DNA of 43,624 nt from a virus: positions 1-43,624 of IMG/VR virus record IMGVR_UViG_3300044814_000055, one strand, 5' to 3'. Below, one piece after another: positions 673 to 36,271 of this stretch. Each line of letters begins with the position of its first letter. Position 1 is the first letter of the stretch. The notes beneath the pieces are model-generated. The model did not search any database, had not been told where the DNA came from, and saw only the letters and a list, made by a program, of their open reading frames with translations. The position numbers and the translations under genes are program-made.

Positions 673-2270
673 AGCCGCGGCGCACCCGATCGCGGACGCT
701 CGCGGCGGACCTGTCATCGGCCGTCGATCGAACCCTCGCGGCTGTGCGGTCTGGGGAGTACCCGCTGACGCAATACCAGCGCGACCCGGTCAGGTACGTC
801 CGCGAGCGGCTTCGGGTCAAAGTCATCATGCCGCACCAAGCGGCCATCCTCGAAGCGCTCGCCGCGGGGATCGCCGGTTTGGCACACCCGCGCGTTGCGG
901 TGCGAAGCGGGCAAAAGAGCGGGAAAACAGCCACGGCCGTGTGGGCTGCCCTCTGGTTTTACGAGTGCTTCGCGGGCGCTCAGGTGCTCATGACGGCGGC
1001 CATCGAGGCGCAGACGCGCGGCGTTCTCTGGAAGGAGCTCGGCGACACGAAGCGGCGAGCGGAAACGGAAGGGGCCCACATCGACGGCGACCTGTCTCGA
1101 GCGCCCGGCACGGGCCTGGTGAGTTCGGACGGGTCGAGGACGATCCGAGGCGTCTCGGGGCGAGACATCGAAGCGCTGGCCGGCGTCTCTGGGCGGCAAC
1201 TGATGATCGTCGACGAGGCGAGTCACTTGCCCGAAGAAAAGGCGCAAGTCTTCGCCGGCAATCAGATGGGCGGGGGCGGAGCGATCTTGCTCATCAGCAA
1301 CCCCACGGCGAACGCGGGCCCCTTCTACGAGGCCTTCCACGCGATGGGGGCATGGTGGCAGAAGTTTCACGTCAATTGCCTCGAGGTTGCGAAATGGCAA
1401 GTCGCCAACGACGTACGGATCCCGTTCACGACGAGCGCCGAGAAGATCGAAGAGGCGCGCGAGATGTACGGCGAGGACTCGCCCTTTTGGTACTGGCGCG
1501 TGCTCGGGGAATTCCTGCGAAACGAGACGGGGCGAGTCAACCCGATGATCCGGATCGAGGCCGCGATCGCGAGGTGGGCGGACGCCTCCGATGCTGGCCC
1601 GCTTGCGATTGGATACGACCCGGCCGGCGACGGCATCGACGCCGACGAGCACGGGTTTGCCGCGGTGCGCGGCTCGAAGTGCATGGCCATGCATCGACGC
1701 CGAGGGCTCAGGGAGGAAGACGCCCTGCACGAGCTTTACGCGTTCATGAGCGACCATCGGCGGGGCGGAGAGCCCGTGTGGATCATCGTCGACGCGGAGG
1801 GCCCGATCGGCTCGATGTACTACGGGCGCCTTCGCGCGGAGTCCGAGCGGCGCAAGATTCACGACCCGGCCAATGCGTTCGACGTGCAGCCGGTTCGCGC
1901 CTCGAGTCGGTTCGTCCGCGATAAGCGCAAGTTTGACCGCGTGCGCGATGAGCTTGTGTGGGTGCTTTCCCAATGGCTCGTCGATGGGGCGATCCCGAAC
2001 GATCCGAAGCTTCAGGCAGAGCTTTACGCGCCTGTGTGGGAACCGAACGCAAACGGCAAGCTTCAATGCACGAGAAAAGCGGAGCTTCGCGACAAGCTTG
2101 GCCGCTCGCCGGACTCCTTCGACGCGCTCGCTCTCGCGGTCTGGCCGCGGCGCAATCACGCCGGCGAAGCCCCGGCGCCGGCGGCGCCCCCACAGGACGC
2201 GCAGGACGCAGCGTTCATGTACGACCAGCAAGCCGCGGGGGATGTGTGGTGGCCGGACGGCGGAGGCTAG
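669..2270 (+). CDS. terminase large subunit
   Basis: ATP-driven DNA packaging motor and headful nuclease, 533 aa. The GTG at 669 is chosen because it overlaps the upstream stop (GTGA); the longer frame from 600 lies inside the small-subunit gene. A Walker A-like motif (RSGQKSGKT) is followed by Walker B (LMIVDEASH) and the coupling segment LLISNPTANAGPFYEAF. The C-terminal nuclease half carries acidic motifs AIGYDPAGDG, WIIVDAEGP and PDSFDALALAVW. It is full length for the family. Its TAG stop overlaps the stop of the convergent portal gene by a few bases, leaving no room for an intergenic terminator. Confidence 0.93.
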   Translation: MKPRRTRSRTLAADLSSAVDRTLAAVRSGEYPLTQYQRDPVRYVRERLRVKVIMPHQAAILEALAAGIAGLAHPRVAVRSGQKSGKTATAVWAALWFYECFAGAQVLMTAAIEAQTRGVLWKELGDTKRRAETEGAHIDGDLSRAPGTGLVSSDGSRTIRGVSGRDIEALAGVSGRQLMIVDEASHLPEEKAQVFAGNQMGGGGAILLISNPTANAGPFYEAFHAMGAWWQKFHVNCLEVAKWQVANDVRIPFTTSAEKIEEAREMYGEDSPFWYWRVLGEFLRNETGRVNPMIRIEAAIARWADASDAGPLAIGYDPAGDGIDADEHGFAAVRGSKCMAMHRRRGLREEDALHELYAFMSDHRRGGEPVWIIVDAEGPIGSMYYGRLRAESERRKIHDPANAFDVQPVRASSRFVRDKRKFDRVRDELVWVLSQWLVDGAIPNDPKLQAELYAPVWEPNANGKLQCTRKAELRDKLGRSPDSFDALALAVWPRRNHAGEAPAPAAPPQDAQDAAFMYDQQAAGDVWWPDGGG

Positions 2271-3661
2271 GCCGCCTGGTCGTTCGCTGGCGGCGGTGCG
2301 CCCGTAGGCTCTTCCGTCTTCACTTCGGGCATCGGGGCCCCCTCGGACACGGGCACGCCGAAGCGCGCTAGTATCTCTGTGATGTTGAGAGACACCGGGT
2401 CCGTCGTTCCCGCCGCGACCTGCGCGGCCGCAATCGCCTCGACCAGTCCCTTGATGGCATTGGCGACCGTGACGAGGGTCGAAGCCTCCGTCGAGCGATC
2501 CTTCGGTGCGCTGACGTCGGTCTCGATGCGCGTCGCGTTCGCGAGGGCGTCGACGCCCCAACGGCGACCGATGAAGCCGGGCAGGATCTGCGTATTGACG
2601 GTGTGATCCCATCCGTCGGCGGTCGTTTTGATTATGTCGAGGGCGACGACGCGAAAGACGTCAAGATTCGTGAAGCCCGTCGTTCCTTGCAACATGACGG
2701 CCGAACCGCAAAGCGCGGTCGCGATCTCTTCGTTGTACGTCTTAATCGAATTTTCGTAGATCTCGATGCCGCGACCGTTGCTCTCGATGAGCTTCACTTC
2801 CCAGCCGGCGGGGATGGCAAATGCCGAATTCATCGCCCATCGAATGATGCCATTGAGAAGGCTTCGCTTGTCGTCCTCGCTCGCGCCGAGCGGCGACTGC
2901 GCGACGCGCGCCGGGTGCGAGTGCTTCATCTCGTAGGACTGTCGAGCGAAGAGCGTCTGCGTTTTGTTGATGTACGAGCGCCCGAGAGTGTTCCAGACTC
3001 CCGAATTCCACGGAGCGAGGCGCCCTCCCGGAATGTGAAGGATCCACGTATTGCCGTCCTCGTCGGGCACGCCGGGCGTGATGGGCATGAAGCCGACGAT
3101 CGAGCGGTAAAACCACCGATTCTTGGTCCACATGAAATAGAGATTTTGCGGATACCGGCGCACGAGCACCGGGAAGTCCCGGCCTTGCACGGGGACGAGC
3201 GTGCCGACCGACACGCCGGCGGTGATGCCGTCGCCGCACATCAGGCGCGCCTCGGTCGCGGGGATCATCTCGTCGTAGACGCTGCGGTCGCTCGCATTTC
3301 GCGACTGAAGGACGTCGATGATCTCGCGGTCGCCGTAGTAGCGCTTGGGGAAGTTGCAGACGCTTGTTCGCGCGTCGAGCATGCCGCGCACGACGCCATC
3401 GATCTTCATCGACTCGCACAGCTGCCCGACCATCGTCATGTCACCGTTCGAGACCTGGCGCTGCGCGCGCTCGATGTCCGGCGGGTACCATCGAAGCCGG
3501 ACTTGCGGGATCGGCTCGAGCTCGCCCCCGAGGGCTTGGCGCGCTGAACGCGTCCAGTCGTCGCCGAGCTCGGGGCCGTAGGTCGGTGTGGGCGGAGCAA
3601 ACGTCGAGATCCCGAGAAGCGCGGCAACGAGATCCTTGATCGAGTCTTTGACCGTGGGCAC
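2267..3661 (-). CDS. portal protein (DUF935 / Mu gp29-like), inverted
   Basis: Dodecameric portal through which DNA enters the capsid, 464 aa with a GTG start. The order is typical of Mu gp29/DUF935 portals: an N-terminal arm, a central region with VRRYPQNLYFMWT and WILHIPGGRLAPW, then FAIPAGWEVKLIES and the C-terminal stretch GSAVMLQGTTGFTNLDV. It is the only virion gene on the minus strand: the terminase before it and the protease after it both point right, so it cannot share their transcript and needs its own promoter, presumably near 3662-3744. No clear Shine-Dalgarno precedes the GTG. Family assignment is good; the inversion is seen directly. Confidence 0.85.
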   Translation of the reverse strand: MPTVKDSIKDLVAALLGISTFAPPTPTYGPELGDDWTRSARQALGGELEPIPQVRLRWYPPDIERAQRQVSNGDMTMVGQLCESMKIDGVVRGMLDARTSVCNFPKRYYGDREIIDVLQSRNASDRSVYDEMIPATEARLMCGDGITAGVSVGTLVPVQGRDFPVLVRRYPQNLYFMWTKNRWFYRSIVGFMPITPGVPDEDGNTWILHIPGGRLAPWNSGVWNTLGRSYINKTQTLFARQSYEMKHSHPARVAQSPLGASEDDKRSLLNGIIRWAMNSAFAIPAGWEVKLIESNGRGIEIYENSIKTYNEEIATALCGSAVMLQGTTGFTNLDVFRVVALDIIKTTADGWDHTVNTQILPGFIGRRWGVDALANATRIETDVSAPKDRSTEASTLVTVANAIKGLVEAIAAAQVAAGTTDPVSLNITEILARFGVPVSEGAPMPEVKTEEPTGAPPPANDQAA

Positions 3662-6835: not shown

Positions 6836-7615
6836 ATGCTCCCGCCGATCCCATTCTTCGACGTCTCCGGCTACAAGCGACGCTCGTCGTCGCTCACGCC
6901 CGAAGACATCGATCTCGCGACGACGCGCTTCCCTGGCTTCGTCGAGCACCGGATCGCGGGCGGGTCATCGAGAATCGGCGCGCGCCTCGCCAAGCGGTAC
7001 GCGACGCCGCTCGGCAAGTCCCCACCGCAACTGCTCGCGTTTGGAACGCTCCCCCCCGTCGTCACGCTGACGGGTCGGCCGACGCTCGGAAGTCTCGAGA
7101 TGGCCGTCCAAGTGACGACGCCCGGCATCGTGGGCGCAGCGGTCTTTCGCTGGTCTCAGGACGGAGGCGAGACCTGGACTTCGACGTCCACTGCGGCGAC
7201 GGTGGCGCTTGGAACGACGGGCCTGACCGCAAACTTCCCCGCGGGCAGCTACGGCGCGGACAACGTCTACCGCGCCTCGACGCCCATCCCTGAGATCGTG
7301 CTCGGCTGGCTGGTCGCGATCGTCGACGTCGACGTCTGGCGTCGGCGCGGGGTCAATCCTCAGGACCCCATGATCGAATTGGCCGTGGCGGACCGAACGG
7401 CGGCCCTTGCGGAGATCGAGGAAGCCGCGAACGCAAAAGAAGGGCTCTACGACCTGCCCACAAACGACATGTCGGGCGACTCGACGATCACGAGAAGCGG
7501 GCCGCTTTGCTACACGGAAAGCTCGCCCTTCGTTGGCGCGGATCTCATCGATCGGGCTGGTGTCTGCGAGGACGAAAACGGTACGGGTACCTACGGAGGC
7601 AATTGGAATGGCTAA
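6836..7615 (+). CDS. head-tail connector (DUF1320 / Mu gp36-like) with inserted Asp-box-like domain
   Basis: 259 aa, ATG with GGGGGGA immediately upstream. The N- and C-terminal parts match DUF1320 connectors: ATTRFPGFVEHRIAGGSSRI, GARLAKRYATPLGKSPP, then WLVAIVDVDVWRRRGVNPQDP and the AxxxIEEAAN helix. Between them about 75 residues are inserted that look like a beta-sandwich with one Asp-box (SQDGGETW). The family is normally near 140 aa, so the insertion explains the extra length. A similar insertion occurs in the tail sheath. Overlaps the next gene by 8 bases. Confidence 0.75.
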   Translation: MLPPIPFFDVSGYKRRSSSLTPEDIDLATTRFPGFVEHRIAGGSSRIGARLAKRYATPLGKSPPQLLAFGTLPPVVTLTGRPTLGSLEMAVQVTTPGIVGAAVFRWSQDGGETWTSTSTAATVALGTTGLTANFPAGSYGADNVYRASTPIPEIVLGWLVAIVDVDVWRRRGVNPQDPMIELAVADRTAALAEIEEAANAKEGLYDLPTNDMSGDSTITRSGPLCYTESSPFVGADLIDRAGVCEDENGTGTYGGNWNG

Positions 7616-8312
7616 CAAGACCCCCAAATCCGCAAGCGCCGCACAGAAGTCGGACGAGCCGGCGGTCGAGAGTGACGTCGACGTCGCAAGCGCCGCACAG
7701 AAGTCGGACGAGCCGGCGGTCGAGCAGGCGGAAGCGAGGGTCTGGCGGCGCGTCGAGGCGATCATTTCCGATCTCTTGTCCGTGCGCGAAAACCTTCTCG
7801 AGATTCACGCCTTCATCGAAGGGTGCCGAGCGGACGGTCCCGTGGACGCCACGGCGCCGGCGGGCATGCTCGCAGGCGTGCTGCTCCAGGCGGGAGGTGG
7901 TCTACACGTTGGGGACGGGCACGAACTGCGATGGCTGCTCGAGGCGCCCACACCGGCGCAGAAAGCGGCGGACCCAGACGGCAACCTCGCGACCCGCGCC
8001 CTCGTCGACTACCTGCTTTGCTCGATCGAGCACGGACGGCACCACCCGGATCTCAGAAAAGAGCGGCTCCAGCGCATTGCCCAATTGTGGCCCGAGTGCC
8101 GCACGAAGGCAGACGCCGACGCGGATGAAGCCGAGGCGCATCGTGACGAGATTGCAGACAAGGACGCCCGCGAGCAGGAAGCCCATCAAAAGCGCATCGG
8201 CGAGAAGCATCGGGCCGACATTGCGGCGCGCTCTCTTGCGCGCCCGGCTCCTCCCGTGCAGTCGCGCCCCGACGGCGAATTCGAAGAAAACGAAGCCCCC
8301 CGCGTCTCGTGA
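7608..8312 (+). CDS. unknown head-tail region protein; locus matched by a CRISPR spacer
   Basis: 234 aa, ATG at 7608 with GGAGG nine bases before. I do not recognise the family. The N-terminus has two copies of ASAAQKSDEPAVE encoded by an exact 40-bp DNA duplication (7631-7670 and 7685-7724). The middle is helical (WRRVEAIISDLLSVRENLLE, LVDYLLCSIEHGRHH) and the C-terminus is a charged coiled coil. It lies between two connector-type genes, so a tail-completion or chaperone role is possible. Positions 7928-7966 match spacer 26760-26798 (reverse complement) at 36 of 39 bases, making this the only gene here clearly hit by the phage's own array. Confidence 0.75.
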   Translation: MANKTPKSASAAQKSDEPAVESDVDVASAAQKSDEPAVEQAEARVWRRVEAIISDLLSVRENLLEIHAFIEGCRADGPVDATAPAGMLAGVLLQAGGGLHVGDGHELRWLLEAPTPAQKAADPDGNLATRALVDYLLCSIEHGRHHPDLRKERLQRIAQLWPECRTKADADADEAEAHRDEIADKDAREQEAHQKRIGEKHRADIAARSLARPAPPVQSRPDGEFEENEAPRVS

Positions 8313-25233: not shown

Positions 25234-25752
25234 TCAGCCCGCCTTGATCGCTGCAACTATCTCGGCCTGGAGATCGGCTGGACAATGGGGCCGCGCCTGG
25301 ACGAGCAGGGCGAGCAGGAGTGCAAGCTTGTCCGTCGAGGCGCCCTGCATCGCAGGCTGGGCGTCCTCATCGAGCGACTCGGCCGGCATATCCGCAATGC
25401 ACTCGTCCGCGAGCTTGTCGTCATCGACGATGCCGCCCATGCGACGGATCGCTCGTATGGTACCGTCGTCGTCGGGCACATGCCCCAGAGGTGGCACGAG
25501 GAATCCTCCCTCGCTCCCTCGCCAGCCAGCGTGCACGCCGCCTGGACCGCTACGCAGCCAACCGTAGACGAGGCGTCGGCCGTCCGCGTGCTCGCGGACA
25601 CGGATCGCCCATTTGTGGTTCGCCTCGCACTCGACTTGACCGTCATGCTCTTCGGCGCTCGCGATGAGCGGCCAGTCCGTTTCGCTGATGTTCAGCGGAC
25701 GTCGCTCGGACATCGGGATCTTGATTTTCTTCGGGGCTTCGGTGGTGGTCAT
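25234..25752 (-). CDS. conserved phage protein of unknown function
   Basis: 172 aa, ATG with AGAAGGA nine bases upstream. The N-terminal half (PMSERRPLNISETDWPLIAS, WAIRVREHADGRRLVYGW) resembles a phage protein family of unknown function. A hinge with FLVPPLGHVPDDDGTIRAIR follows, then an acidic segment and a hydrophobic helix (TDKLALLLALLVQARPHC). No catalytic motif is evident. Confidence 0.65.
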   Translation of the reverse strand: MTTTEAPKKIKIPMSERRPLNISETDWPLIASAEEHDGQVECEANHKWAIRVREHADGRRLVYGWLRSGPGGVHAGWRGSEGGFLVPPLGHVPDDDGTIRAIRRMGGIVDDDKLADECIADMPAESLDEDAQPAMQGASTDKLALLLALLVQARPHCPADLQAEIVAAIKAG

Positions 25753-25829
25753 GGTGGTGGTCCTTCTGCGGCTCGATTGCCGCGCCCCGGATCCGCGTGT
25801 GGCAGGTCCGGGCCGCGACGGGCGAACGC

Positions 25830-26069
25830 TCAGGACTCCTCGTCGTATAGGCCCGATCCGTAGTAGTCGCCTGTCTGCGCATAATTGCGTCGCGCGATTG
25901 CGAGGTCGCGATTGTAGGGGCGTCGACCGCCGGTCGTGCTAGCGACGCTCGCACCCGAGCAGGTCACATGCTTGGCCTTGCTGCCCTTGCTCCACTCGAC
26001 CTTGCTGCCGACACTGATCGGTTTCAGGCAGCAGTGGCACGTCGATGCGAACTTTGCGGTGATGATCAT
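25830..26069 (-). CDS. small zinc-binding protein
   Basis: 79 aa from ATG 26069, preceded by a CGGAG ribosome site. The motif CHCCLKPISVGSKVEWSKG followed by KHVTC gives a C-x2-C...H-x2-C zinc site like the PARP-type fingers found in small phage proteins. It ends in Tyr/Gly-rich YAQTGDYYGSGLYDEES. First gene after the promoter at 26131-26159. Confidence 0.65.
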   Translation of the reverse strand: MIITAKFASTCHCCLKPISVGSKVEWSKGSKAKHVTCSGASVASTTGGRRPYNRDLAIARRNYAQTGDYYGSGLYDEES

Positions 26070-26130
26070 GGCTGACTCCGGTGGTGGTGGTGGTGGTCTT
26101 GCGGGAGACCTTGCGTCCCTCACATCAACT

Positions 26131-26159
26131 AATCTAGCTAGTGTACGTACACAAGTCAA
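26131..26159 (-). promoter_or_regulatory. sigma70-type promoter with palindromic operator, leftward
   Basis: Read on the minus strand: TTGACT (26154-26159), a 17-base spacer, TAGATT (26131-26136). The spacer contains the perfect palindrome GTGTACGTACAC (26141-26152), next to a second short palindrome CTAGCTAG (26134-26141), so the promoter is probably repressible. It drives the three leftward genes 26069 to 25003. Confidence 0.65.
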
Positions 26160-26282: not shown

Positions 26283-27052
26283 GGCGTGGTCTCCTTGTCG
26301 CGCGCTGCCATTGATCCTCCGCGTGGAGATGCCAGCGGCCATGGCCGGCGTCACGCGGTCGCGACGTCCAAGGCCTCGCGCTGCCATTGATCCTCCGCAA
26401 GATCGCTTCGCAGCGCTCCAGCAGCGGCGTGTCGCGACGTCCAAGGCCTCGCGCTGCCATTGATCCCAGAGCCTGGTCCTTGGGTAAGGGGACCCACACT
26501 TGCGTGTCGCGACGTCCAAGGCCTCGCGCTGCCATTGATCCCGACGAGCTCACGAAGCAGCCGAACTGCGAAGACCCAGAGTCGCGACGTCCAAGGCCTC
26601 GCGCTGCCATTGATCCTGCCCGCACGTGCGTGCGCCTCGGCAGCCCCATCGGGTCGCGACGTCCAAGGCCTCGCGCTGCCATTGATCCCGGCCGGTCAGG
26701 CGCCACCCGCGCCAGCCGCTGGAGTCGCGACGTCCAAGGCCTCGCGCTGCCATTGATCCTCCTTCTGCGCCGGTGTGGGCGCCTCGAGCAGCCATCGGGT
26801 CGCGACGTCCAAGGCCTCGCGCTGCCATTGATCCAAACCCGAGAAACCTGCGGCCCTCGGCCGCAGCAGCAAGTCGCGACGTCCAAGGCCTCGCGCTGCC
26901 ATTGATCCTACCGATGCCGCCGGCGAGCGAGCGCAAGTTTCTCGGTCGCGACGTCCAAGGCCTCGCGCTGCCATTGATCCCGCTCGCGTTCTCGGCGACA
27001 AACGCAAGTACGTGTAGTCGCGACGTCCAAGGCCTCGCGCTGCCATTGATCC
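26282..27052 (-). CRISPR. CRISPR array, 10 perfect 36-bp repeats plus 1 degenerate, 10 spacers
   Basis: Read on the plus strand each repeat begins GTCGCGACGTCC and ends GCGCTGCCATTGATCC. Perfect copies start at 26358, 26431, 26506, 26581, 26653, 26724, 26799, 26873, 26945 and 27017. At 26282-26317 only the last 16 bases are kept, marking the distal end, so the array is transcribed leftward with the effector gene. In that sense repeats end GTCGCGAC and can fold a CGCGA/TCGCG hairpin. Spacers in transcription order: 26981-27016, 26909-26944, 26835-26872, 26760-26798, 26689-26723, 26617-26652, 26542-26580, 26467-26505, 26394-26430, 26318-26357 (35-40 nt). Only 20 bp separate it from the effector stop, so there is no leader. 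Confidence 0.97.
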
Positions 27053-27072
27053 GGGCCCACCAGGCACCCCAA

Positions 27073-28743
27073 TCATTCCGCAGCCTTACCGGCTGCATTT
27101 CGAGCACCCTCATTTTTCGTCCCCCGTTCGAGCTTCGCCTGTTTGCGCCGCGCCCACGCGCCGCCCTTTTCTCCGCTGATTGCCTTGGTTTTTTTGCTCT
27201 TGCGAGCACCTACCGCCAATTTCCCGTCGCGCCACTGCTCGATCGCAAAGTCGAGCCACTCGGGAGGATCGCTATCCTCGTCGCCATCGTCGATCACGCC
27301 ATGCGGTCCCCGCCAGGCCACTTCGTGCGTGTCGGGTCCGAACGCGTGCCGCATACAATCGCGCAACTCCTGCGGAGCCGCCGTAAATCTGCGATCGGAG
27401 TCCTCACCCCATCGCGCCTCGCGGGACAGGTCCCGATCGGGCACCAGCGCCGACTCATATTTTCGCGACCATTCGGCAGCCAACACGCGGTACCTCTCGC
27501 GTCGTCGCCGCAGCGCCTGGCGTCGGCCGCACGCCTCGTACTCCCACAGGTGTCGGTCACGTAGCCACCACGCGTCGAGCAATTCGTACGCGTCGCGGGC
27601 CGCGTCGCATTTCTCCCACCTCCACCGATCCACCAGGCCGTGAAACCGTTCCTGTGATTTCCAGTACTGCATGTTCGCGCCCGCCTCGCGAAGCCACGGC
27701 GGAACATCGTCGCGGCTTTCGGCGATCATGCGCGCGAGCTTCGGCCGCAGATCGTTCAGCAGTTGGTCACGCACCGAACGAATCCCATCCGATTTGCGGA
27801 CGCCGGCGACGTCGCGCGCGGATAGAATGATCTCGCCGCGATCGCCCGACGAATCGCGCCACACGCCCACGCGCATCGAGCCGTCGTCGAGCGTCGACCA
27901 GAGAAGCTCCAGGGCGATCGCTCCACCGGGCGTGATCCGCGTCGGCTTCGCTGGACAGTCGACCGTAAATTCGCACGTCCACCGCTGGTAGGGTCCTTCG
28001 TTTCGCCGCGACACGCGCGCCCATTTGATCGTGCCGGCGTCGGGCAATTCGCGGTGCTTTGTGACCTGAAACTTCGCCCAGATCGGCGCGTGGCCCTCGG
28101 AGCCAACGCGCATCCAGAGAACACCCTCGGTCCAGCGGAGCCGCGTATCGTCGCCGGCCAAGAGCCGCGAGACCGCAAGACCTCCCTGCAACTGCACACC
28201 GATCTGCCCCTCACCTCGCCAGCGCACGAATCGTGGGTCGGCCGGAGTCGCCCCATCGTCGTCGTAGAGTGGAGCCTTGCGGGACTGATCCGCGGAGGCT
28301 TCGATCGTGAGGTAGGAGCCCCAGTAGCAGGTGGTCAGCGCTCGCGCGTCGCGGCGGATCGAACCGTCGAGCGCGCGGATTCGCGCCATCTCGCTCCCCG
28401 CCGGGTCGAGCGCGGATAGATCGTACTGCTCGACGTCGGGCGAGATCGACACGTCCGCGATGAGCGAGCGCATGTCGTCACTATCAGCTTGCGCTTCGGC
28501 GCGTCGACGGGCGCGGTCCAGTGCGCGTAGTGCGTCGATGCGCGACGAACGCGTGGCCGCCCGCAGCTCGTCGATCCGCTCGCGAACTTCGGTCGTGTCG
28601 TGCGTTGCGCGCACGGCGCTGCGGCGTCCGCGCTCGACGGACACGAGATCGTTGCGGTAGTTGTGCGCGGCGCGCAGTTGAGATTCTACGAGCTCGGCGG
28701 CCTCAATCGGGGGGCGGACGCCGTATTGGTAGACTCGGATCAC
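27073..28743 (-). CDS. compact Cas12-like (type V) effector with degenerate RuvC
   Basis: 556 aa from the GTG at 28743, which overlaps the previous stop (GTGA) with GGAGAGG 11 bases upstream; the frame extends further upstream only through another gene. N-terminal IRVYQYGVRPP and QLRAAHNYRNDLVSVERGRR match the opening of small phage/V-U/Cas12m-type effectors. The RuvC-like C-half is recognisable: ALELLWSTLDDGSMRVGVW (275-294), WLREAGANMQYWKSQERFHG, RDRHLWEYEACGRRQALRR, YRVLAAEWSRKYE. The expected RuvC-I Asp is Glu279, the RuvC-II Glu of the IEDFDL-like motif is Pro435 (VPDRDL), and the C-terminal segment has no CxxC zinc finger and no RuvC-III Asp. The tail is Lys/Arg-rich. Most likely an RNA-guided DNA binder that does not cut. 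The family is inferred by pattern, not search. Confidence 0.8.
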   Translation of the reverse strand: MIRVYQYGVRPPIEAAELVESQLRAAHNYRNDLVSVERGRRSAVRATHDTTEVRERIDELRAATRSSRIDALRALDRARRRAEAQADSDDMRSLIADVSISPDVEQYDLSALDPAGSEMARIRALDGSIRRDARALTTCYWGSYLTIEASADQSRKAPLYDDDGATPADPRFVRWRGEGQIGVQLQGGLAVSRLLAGDDTRLRWTEGVLWMRVGSEGHAPIWAKFQVTKHRELPDAGTIKWARVSRRNEGPYQRWTCEFTVDCPAKPTRITPGGAIALELLWSTLDDGSMRVGVWRDSSGDRGEIILSARDVAGVRKSDGIRSVRDQLLNDLRPKLARMIAESRDDVPPWLREAGANMQYWKSQERFHGLVDRWRWEKCDAARDAYELLDAWWLRDRHLWEYEACGRRQALRRRRERYRVLAAEWSRKYESALVPDRDLSREARWGEDSDRRFTAAPQELRDCMRHAFGPDTHEVAWRGPHGVIDDGDEDSDPPEWLDFAIEQWRDGKLAVGARKSKKTKAISGEKGGAWARRKQAKLERGTKNEGARNAAGKAAE

Positions 28744-33386: not shown

Positions 33387-34403
33387 ATGGCTGTCTCGAC
33401 GCGTCCCCGGCCTCTCTTCGAGCGGCTGACGCGCGCCCGACGTGGTCGCAAGCCGAGGCAGTTGCCTCTCTATCCGCGCCCCGTGACGCGGGGGGACTGC
33501 GCCGAAGTGCCGCGCCCGTGTCTCTTCGTTGCGTGCGTCCACAACCTGTTCTTGGACTACTTGCCGCCGAGCGATCCGCCGAATCCTCTTTCGCCGTGCG
33601 GCACGCTCAAACTGAACTTCGCCAACCCGGCGGACATGCCTCCCGAGTCGTCGTGCGCGCTCGACGTGGCGGAGCGCGGCGAACAGACGCTCGAGGAGAT
33701 CGCGGCCGTCATGAATATGAGCGACGAGCGCGTGCGGCAGATCGACTTGGAAGCTCGGGAGCGAGTGATCGAAGAAATCACGCGCCTTCGTGAATCTGGA
33801 GCGTGGGACGAAACGGAGGAGGACGAGACCATGGCAGCGAAAAAGAAGCAGGCAGACAAGTGGAATGGCGCGGTCGCGGCGAGCGCCGCGGGCGTGGCGG
33901 GAGCCGTCAAAAAGGGGGCGCACGTCGAGAAGCTTCCGGTGCGCATCGAGCGCGACAAGGTCGAGGCGAAGGCGAAGAAAATGGCGATCGTCATTCGCGA
34001 GCGCGAAGAGGTGCTCGAAGAGAAGCGCGAGGCAAATGCCGAGTATCGGAGCAAGCTCAATCACTTCGATGAGCAGTTGACCGAGCTTGCGGCGTCGGTC
34101 GAGTCGGCCACGGAGGCGAAAAACGTGGAGTGCATCGACTACCTACTACCGACCAATGAGATTCAGACGGTCCGCACGGATACCGGAGAGGTCGTCGAGA
34201 CGCGCGCGGCGACGAGCGACGAGCTGCAAGCGAAGCTCCCCCTCGACGCTGACGACGAAGTGAGCCGAGAGTTCCCGGACGAAGTCACCTTCGAGGAAGG
34301 AACGTTCCCCGCCATCAAGCCGCCGCGCGGATCGAAAGTGGTGATTCCGAAAGTGGCGAAGCATCACAAGGCGAAGGCCGTTCAGCCGAGCGATGCGGGA
34401 TGA
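33387..34403 (+). CDS. sigma-region-4-like regulator fused to a second phage protein
   Basis: 338 aa. The N-terminal part has RPCLFVACVHNLFLDY, SCALDVAERGEQTLEEIAAVMN and SDERVRQIDLEARERV: a sigma70 region-4-like HTH with a Cys-containing N-terminal segment, the type seen in small sigma-like phage and bacterial DNA-binding proteins. From about residue 149 (MAAKKKQADKWN) an unrelated coiled-coil protein follows (KAKKMAIVIREREEVLEEKR, ECIDYLLPTNEIQTVRTDTG). The break coincides with ATG 33831 preceded by GGAGGAGG, so the second half is probably also made separately (33831-34403, 190 aa). It overlaps the next gene as ATGA. Confidence 0.7.
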   Translation: MAVSTRPRPLFERLTRARRGRKPRQLPLYPRPVTRGDCAEVPRPCLFVACVHNLFLDYLPPSDPPNPLSPCGTLKLNFANPADMPPESSCALDVAERGEQTLEEIAAVMNMSDERVRQIDLEARERVIEEITRLRESGAWDETEEDETMAAKKKQADKWNGAVAASAAGVAGAVKKGAHVEKLPVRIERDKVEAKAKKMAIVIREREEVLEEKREANAEYRSKLNHFDEQLTELAASVESATEAKNVECIDYLLPTNEIQTVRTDTGEVVETRAATSDELQAKLPLDADDEVSREFPDEVTFEEGTFPAIKPPRGSKVVIPKVAKHHKAKAVQPSDAG

Positions 34404-34782: not shown

Positions 34783-34970
34783 ATATCAAGCAGGCCCGCA
34801 CCCTCGCCACGAGTTACCTGGCGACCGCGACGGCGCAGCGCTTTGGCGTGCCGTGCACGGTCCAGACCACCGAATGGCTGGCCAGCTTGATCGTCGACAT
34901 TCAGGCCGGGGCCCTGCAGCAGGCCGCCGCGCCCCTCTCGTGGCTCTGGCTTCGGGGGGCTGCAGCGTGA
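34779..34970 (+). CDS. 63-aa helical protein of unknown function
   Basis: GTG overlapping the mini-ORF stop and TGA overlapping the methyltransferase start, so it lies in the middle of a fully coupled operon. Mostly helical (IKQARTLATSYLATATAQRF, WLASLIVDIQAGALQQAA), ending WLWLRGAAA. No motif recognised. Confidence 0.6.
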   Translation: MNIKQARTLATSYLATATAQRFGVPCTVQTTEWLASLIVDIQAGALQQAAAPLSWLWLRGAAA

Positions 34971-36271
34971 CCATCCTCGAGGTCTTTGCTTGCTCGGGCG
35001 GCATGGCCGAAGGCTTGCGTCGCGCGGGGCTCGCGCCGACGATGGCGTTCGACGCCGACCCCGACGCTTGCGACTCGTACGAAGCGAACCTCGGGCACCG
35101 TCCGGTTCAGGTCGACGCGCGCGATCTCTTGCGCCTTGTGCGCGCCGGCTGGTCGCCCGGTCCCGTTGATCTCTTCGTCGCCGATCCCCCGTGCACACCG
35201 TGGAGCCGGGCCGGCAAGCGGCTAGGGGTCGAGGACGAGCGCGACATGCTCGGCGTGACCGTGGAACTCATCACGCTCCTTCATCCGCGCGCGTGGCTCA
35301 TCGCGAACGTGCCGGGGCTCGATGACGGCCCGAACTGGCCGACGGTACAGCGCACGATCGGGTCGCTCGCGCCGGTCTACTGCATCGATTTTGCGCGCCT
35401 CGACGCGGCCGACTACGGCGTGCCGCAACATCGCGTCCGGCCCTTCTGGTACGGACACGGCATCGCACACCGTTGCCTAGAATGGCCGTTGAGGACTCAT
35501 GCCGCGCCCGATGCGTGCGGAGCCACGCTCCCGGGCATCACGGAGCGACGTAAGCCATACGTGACATGCCGCGAGGCGCTCGGGCACCTATCGCCCGAGG
35601 ATCTCGGCAGCCCCGTGCGGCTTCGCTGGCGGGCTGGCGAGAAAGCTGGAAACAAGGCGCGCGCGTCGCATCTCGACGAACCGGCGGGAGTGGTCTGCTC
35701 AAAGGCCGATCGGGGTGACGGAACGATCGTGTTCGACGGTCCCAATCATCGCCCGTCACGTGCCGATGGCCCCGCGCGCACGCTCACCCGAAACACGCAC
35801 GGCGACGGCTCGCTACTCGTCAGCGCCGACATGTTTTCGCCGTCCAAAGAGGACGAGCCATCGCGGACGATTCGATCTGCGGCACGCGGGGGGCAACTGC
35901 TCATCACCCCTCACCATCCCCCATCGAACGCCCACGAGGTGTCACGGACGATCCGCGCGAGTTCGGCTGGAACGCCGGACAAACAGATTCACGGCTGGCC
36001 GTGGGATCGACCGTCGACGACGGTCACGAGCACCGATCGGCTCGGCCCTCCCGAGCATCACGAGGGCTCGTTTCTGAGCGGGCCGAACGCCATCAAGATC
36101 AGCGAAAAGGCAGCGGCGATCTTGCAGGGATTTCCTGATGGCTGGACCTTCTGCGGCAGGACGAAGGCCTCGCGCTGGTCGCAGCTCGGGCAGGCCATGC
36201 CGCCCCCTCTCGCCGAAGCCGTCGCGCGGAGCATTGCGCGGTCGCTCGGGCGCACCACGAGGGCAGCATGA
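34967..36271 (+). CDS. C5-cytosine DNA methyltransferase, motif VI altered
   Basis: 434 aa from the GTG overlapping the upstream stop. Motif I EVFACSGGMAEGL, motif IV ADPPCTPWSRAG with the catalytic Cys, motif VIII DYGVPQHRVRPFW, and motif IX/X KISEKAAAILQGFPDGWTF with SQLGQAMPPPLAEAVA are all present. Motif VI, normally ENV, reads WLIANVPGL: the cytosine-protonating Glu is Ala (codon GCG). The target recognition region carries four repeated blocks (EPAGVVCSK, GPARTLTRN, EPSRTIRSA, EVSRTIRAS). Expected to modify phage DNA against host restriction, but the Glu loss makes activity uncertain. Confidence 0.88.
   Translation: MTILEVFACSGGMAEGLRRAGLAPTMAFDADPDACDSYEANLGHRPVQVDARDLLRLVRAGWSPGPVDLFVADPPCTPWSRAGKRLGVEDERDMLGVTVELITLLHPRAWLIANVPGLDDGPNWPTVQRTIGSLAPVYCIDFARLDAADYGVPQHRVRPFWYGHGIAHRCLEWPLRTHAAPDACGATLPGITERRKPYVTCREALGHLSPEDLGSPVRLRWRAGEKAGNKARASHLDEPAGVVCSKADRGDGTIVFDGPNHRPSRADGPARTLTRNTHGDGSLLVSADMFSPSKEDEPSRTIRSAARGGQLLITPHHPPSNAHEVSRTIRASSAGTPDKQIHGWPWDRPSTTVTSTDRLGPPEHHEGSFLSGPNAIKISEKAAAILQGFPDGWTFCGRTKASRWSQLGQAMPPPLAEAVARSIARSLGRTTRAA

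What the first reader, a model, noticed from the sequence alone, without database searches (positions are those of the whole stretch)
7928..7966. Array spacer matches the phage's own virion gene with third-codon differences
The reverse complement of spacer 26760-26798 is identical to the phage's own sequence over 7929-7963 (35 consecutive bases), 36 of 39 in total. Differences are CTG to a codon ending C (synonymous if CTC), AAA to AAG (synonymous), and Ala GCG to a GA- codon. Such drift points to a homologous gene in a related phage as the true target, with self-matching tolerated because the effector lacks nuclease residues; alternatively it regulates this gene. The 5' flank here (..AACT) has no T-rich PAM and the first spacer base mismatches.
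Basis: partly seen in the sequence, partly recalled or inferred. Interest (0 to 1): 0.95.

Follow-up and report, generated by a model that had tools for sequence, protein, structure and literature searches.

The report
Phage CRISPR guide matching its carrier
A bacterial virus carries its own small, apparently non-cutting CRISPR system, and one of its ten guides matches one of the virus's own genes almost perfectly; it most likely silences very close viral relatives, but no outside target could be found, so the guide may equally have come from the virus itself.

Summary
The match is real. Spacer 26760-26798 (reverse complement) equals 7928-7966 at 36 of 39 bases, 35 consecutive (7929-7963); about 2e-11 such matches are expected by chance. 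No other spacer matches the phage. The array lies 20 nt behind a Cas12m-like gene on the same strand and has type V-M crRNA architecture (covarying 5-bp stem, 11-nt loop, AC tail). The effector and a 50%-identical one in a second, circular phage lack the C-terminal zinc ribbon, and RuvC-I Asp is Glu, so cutting is unlikely. The self-site lacks a TTN/CCN flank and mismatches guide base 1. The drift argument is weak: all mismatches sit at the spacer's ends (p=0.002), and the 3' GGA copies the repeat's first three bases, as in two other spacers (p=4e-4). Best reading: exclusion or silencing of near-identical phages, with own copy shielded, as in archaeal virus mini-arrays. Origin from the phage itself is not excluded; near-identical records may have been withheld. 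New variant of a known kind.

The parts
7928..7966 (+). self-protospacer (non-target strand, identical in sense to the crRNA guide); 35-base identical core 7929-7963
7608..8312 (+). gene holding the protospacer (P0003, 234 aa, unknown family; between a gene following the capsid gene and the neck gene)
7925..7927 (+). flank where a type V PAM would lie; reads ACT, neither TTN nor CCN
   Evidence: sequence; PAM types from PMC11013384
26318..27052 (-). CRISPR array, ten identical 36-nt repeats and ten spacers of 35-40 nt, read on the minus strand
26301..26317 (-). degenerate terminal repeat (17-nt remnant) at the end far from the effector gene
26760..26798 (-). spacer S7/W7 matching 7928-7966
27053..27072 (-). 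20-nt gap between effector stop and first repeat: little room for a separate leader or promoter
   Evidence: a gap of similar length in L010
27073..28743 (-). Cas12m-like effector gene, 556 aa from GTG at 28743 (the open frame runs on to 28953)

Best explanation
A myovirus-type phage carries a two-part type V-M-like CRISPR system: a small Cas12m-like effector that binds DNA without cutting (inferred), and a ten-spacer array immediately behind it, probably on the same transcript. The guides most likely block genes of competing mobile elements in the host cell. Guide S7 aims at an allele of the fast-evolving gene 7608-8312 in a very close relative, so an infected or lysogenised cell is closed to near-identical phages. 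The carrier's own copy is spared because its flank lacks a recognised PAM and guide base 1 mismatches; even if bound, it would be silenced rather than cut. Shown: the match, the architecture, the loss of effector motifs. Inferred: DNA binding, the target allele, exclusion.
For: 36/39 match far beyond chance. Cas12m identity: PADLOC Cas12u1 E=1e-61, solved Cas12m E=8e-36 and 2e-45 for the two-member profile. Zinc-ribbon cysteines and the RuvC-III DEN motif absent, RuvC-I D to E, in both phage proteins. crRNA hairpin with 100% of pair cells formed and 4 of 5 pairs covarying across six Cas12m arrays. No TTN/CCN flank and guide base 1 mismatch. Characterised Cas12m binds without cutting, PAM-dependently, and provides plasmid and phage interference (PMC11013384). 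Precedent: archaeal virus mini-arrays target close relatives while the carrier's own loci hold point mutations or deletions (PMC6858448); huge-phage arrays target structural genes of other phages (PMC7162821).
Against: No outside protospacer found for any spacer. Mismatches concentrated at the ends fit an edge artefact on a self-derived spacer as well as or better than drift. The PAM of this effector is unknown, so 'shielded' is an inference. Only one of ten spacers is informative. None of the readable spacers of the three other viral Cas12m arrays matches its own record (L011 is only a 9.3-kb fragment).
Confidence: 0.5

Rival explanations
1. The spacer was captured from the phage's own genome (or its direct ancestor) as an accident. 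The 35-base core is an exact copy, and the odd base at the 5' end and GGA at the 3' end come from the repeat edges or from one later mutation. It has no present function, tolerated because the effector cannot cut.
For: 35 consecutive identities with every mismatch in the outer four bases (p=0.002 if random); 3 of 10 spacers end in GGA just before a repeat that begins GGA (p=4e-4); the extra 5' C equals the repeat's last base. No outside protospacer in any collection. A virus with 100% self-matching spacers is published (Chiyouvirus, PMC10848311).
Against: The window encodes no detectable Cas1, so capture would need host machinery. The GGA test was noticed after the fact, and the other arrays examined show no such edge copies. 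The self-site lacks a TTN/CCN flank.
Confidence: 0.28
2. Guide S7 regulates the phage's own gene 7608-8312: the non-cutting effector sits on the gene and lowers or delays its transcription.
For: Cas12m blocks transcription without cleavage (reviewed in PMC11656645). The guide has the sense of the mRNA, so it would pair with the template strand.
Against: No TTN/CCN flank, mismatch at guide base 1; one spacer only; no comparable self-match in the second phage with the same effector type; the gene is not conserved among relatives.
Confidence: 0.1
3. The array is a relic: an old array against past competitors, now not expressed or not used, with S7 left over from an ancestral allele.
For: No spacer has an outside match; no adaptation genes found; degenerate last repeat.
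Against: Ten identical repeats and a full-length open effector frame of which half the residues are conserved in a second phage argue for selection.
Confidence: 0.12

Closest known systems
Type V-M (formerly V-U1) CRISPR-Cas12m: MmCas12m2, GoCas12m and solved Cas12m 23VW
   Same: Sequence homology over nearly the whole effector, 36-nt repeat with 5-bp stem and AC tail, array behind the effector, no adaptation genes found
   Different: No zinc ribbon, no DEN motif, RuvC-I D to E, replaced basic C-terminal tail, carried by a myophage; DNA binding not demonstrated
Virus-borne mini-CRISPR arrays of SPV1/SPV2 (PMC6858448)
   Same: A virus carries a spacer close to its own sequence, while its own locus carries changes at the site
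   Different: Those arrays lack cas genes and have 1-2 spacers, and the target virus is known; here an effector is carried, there are ten spacers, and no target is known
Chiyouvirus self-targeting mini-array (PMC10848311)
   Same: Spacers in a viral array that match the virus itself
   Different: There the match is 100% and the authors predict use of host Cas proteins
Virus Rctr197k Cas12m locus (KX853510)
   Same: Cas12m homologue followed closely by an array in a phage genome
   Different: Keeps the zinc ribbon; 19 spacers read, none self-matching

Membership tests
Type V-M CRISPR-Cas (Cas12m) | effector homologous to Cas12m across the protein | tested here: met
Type V-M CRISPR-Cas (Cas12m) | C-terminal zinc finger and full RuvC domain with a third acidic residue (GoCas12m triad H-D-D) | tested here: not met
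   no CxxC pairs, no DEN motif in window or G001 proteins; one Asp in the window protein can be aligned near that place but G001 lacks it. The AlphaFold model was too poor to use (pLDDT 44.5)
Type V-M CRISPR-Cas (Cas12m) | repeat with a short stem-loop and AC 3' end, array read with the effector gene | tested here: met
   positions
Type V-M CRISPR-Cas (Cas12m) | locus without Cas1/Cas2 adaptation genes | tested here: met
   Cas1 sought in the whole record, none; PADLOC hits no adaptation gene in the genes scanned, mostly 20-43 kb. Cas2 was not sought on its own
Type V-M CRISPR-Cas (Cas12m) | PAM-dependent DNA binding without cleavage | not testable with these tools
   needs biochemistry
Inter-viral CRISPR array (SPV type) | exact protospacer in a related virus | tested here: inconclusive
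Inter-viral CRISPR array (SPV type) | carrier's own orthologous site altered in PAM or seed | tested here: inconclusive
   guide base 1 mismatch and no TTN/CCN flank, but the PAM is unknown

The most novel reading that the evidence does not exclude
A phage uses a naturally nuclease-dead, zinc-ribbon-less Cas12m with a spacer copied from its own genome to time or dampen expression of its own head-tail module gene, a built-in CRISPR interference circuit.
Probability: 0.07. Interest if true: 0.85.

Novelty: new variant of a known kind. Interest (0 to 1): 0.45.

Why it matters
It adds a phage-borne Cas12m variant, now seen in two related myophages, that has lost the zinc ribbon and the end of the RuvC domain, so it asks what minimal Cas12 still binds DNA. 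The near-self spacer gives a clean case for testing how a phage avoids or tolerates its own non-cutting CRISPR guides, which bears on superinfection exclusion between close relatives.

Tried and rejected
No result from: effector, target-gene, repeat and protospacer scans of IMG/VR; protospacer and Cas12m-alignment scans of GTDB genomes; ten spacers against phages and plasmids (E values no better than chance); spacers against 27 related loci and G001: short 21/22 hits of W9 and W4 vanish over full length against shuffles. W5 and W7 resemble each other (p=0.001 for one pair, about 0.05 over 45 pairs) but the alignment breaks frame, so I do not claim a shared target. AlphaFold on three effector sequences failed (pLDDT 44.5). 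Relatives of a virus record, or a plasmid locus as centre, cannot be drawn. Rfam: none. Considered and rejected: chance match; ordinary TnpB (array directly behind, V-M repeat).

Full report
Observation. The array at 26301-27052 has ten identical 36-nt repeats, a 17-nt remnant of an eleventh, and ten spacers of 35-40 nt. The spacer at 26760-26798, reverse complemented, matches 7928-7966 at 36/39 with 35 consecutive identities. About 2e-11 such matches are expected by chance. No other spacer matches the phage above shuffled controls.

What carries it. The window is a 43.6-kb virus record with terminase, portal, protease, tail sheath, tape measure and RecE-like genes, hence a myovirus-type phage. 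The gene next to the intact end of the array, 27073-28743 minus, encodes a 556-aa Cas12m relative (PADLOC Cas12u1 E=1e-61; solved Cas12m 8e-36). The array starts 20 nt behind its stop codon, on the same strand. The repeat, read on the minus strand, has a 5-bp stem, 11-nt loop and AC end; across six Cas12m arrays all pair cells are standard pairs and four of five pairs covary. This fixes the orientation: the guide has the sense of the 7608-8312 mRNA. No Cas1 was detected.

Effector variant. An IMG/VR scan found a second phage, 59,962 bp with a 127-base terminal repeat (so probably complete and circular), with a 50%-identical effector, a similar repeat and syntenic structural genes. Both effectors lack the zinc-ribbon cysteines and the DEN motif, have Glu for the RuvC-I Asp, and share a replaced basic tail. 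Two other viral homologues (Rctr197k, L011) keep the ribbon. Characterised Cas12m proteins, even with ribbon and triad, bind but do not cut (PMC11013384), so a binder is the natural inference; it is not shown.

Target search. A codon-degenerate form of the protospacer has no match in IMG/VR or 84,980 GTDB genomes. Spacers have no significant match in phage or plasmid records. Relatives found through terminase and capsid genes include contigs with terminase 72% and capsid 38-55% identical, but among the 27 capsid-selected loci only L098 has a candidate homologue of the target gene, in the same place and barely alignable (29% over 169 aa, E=0.39). So the gene is accessory and fast-evolving, and a 36/39 match must come from a very close allele or from the phage itself. 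The tools may leave out near-identical records, so absence is not proof.

Drift or self. But all three mismatches are in the outer four bases; with three random mismatches this happens in 0.2% of cases, and the two wobble changes are the two extreme wobble sites of thirteen (1.3%). The 3' GGA repeats the first bases of the adjoining repeat (GGATC), and three of ten spacers end so (p=4e-4, noticed after the fact). If GGA is repeat-derived, the match is 35/36, with only guide base 1 different. Both origins stay open.

How it works. The best reading is exclusion or silencing of close phages by a non-cutting guide complex, with the own site shielded by its flank (ACT, not TTN or CCN) and base-1 mismatch, as for archaeal virus mini-arrays whose own loci carry mutations (PMC6858448). 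Accidental self-capture is the main rival (Chiyouvirus carries perfect self-matches, PMC10848311). Self-regulation is possible but has no positive evidence. Phage-borne V-M systems are already noted in prophages (PMC11656645), so this is a new variant of a known kind.

Noticed in passing
window 2267-3661: The portal gene is on the minus strand between plus-strand terminase and protease genes. It is inverted likewise in relatives L098 and L110, but not in L018, L103 and most others, so this looks like a real, perhaps recurrent inversion rather than an assembly error.
   Followed up: partly
L011 2903-5414: A second kind of phage carries a zinc-ribbon Cas12m and ten-repeat array inside its head-gene module, between a head morphogenesis gene and a protease-like gene (gene names are my reading of the sequences).
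   Followed up: partly
window 7632-7724: A 39-base sequence is repeated exactly, 54 bases apart, in the 5' end of the target gene, duplicating the peptide ASAAQKSDEPAVE.
   Followed up: no
window 25234-26159: Two small minus-strand genes next to the array are 52% and 67% identical to neighbours in the second Cas12m phage, where they lie far from its array; no Pfam family.
   Followed up: no
window 34853-36271: DNA cytosine methyltransferase gene, with a sigma-70 region 4-like gene nearby at 33387-34403.
   Followed up: no
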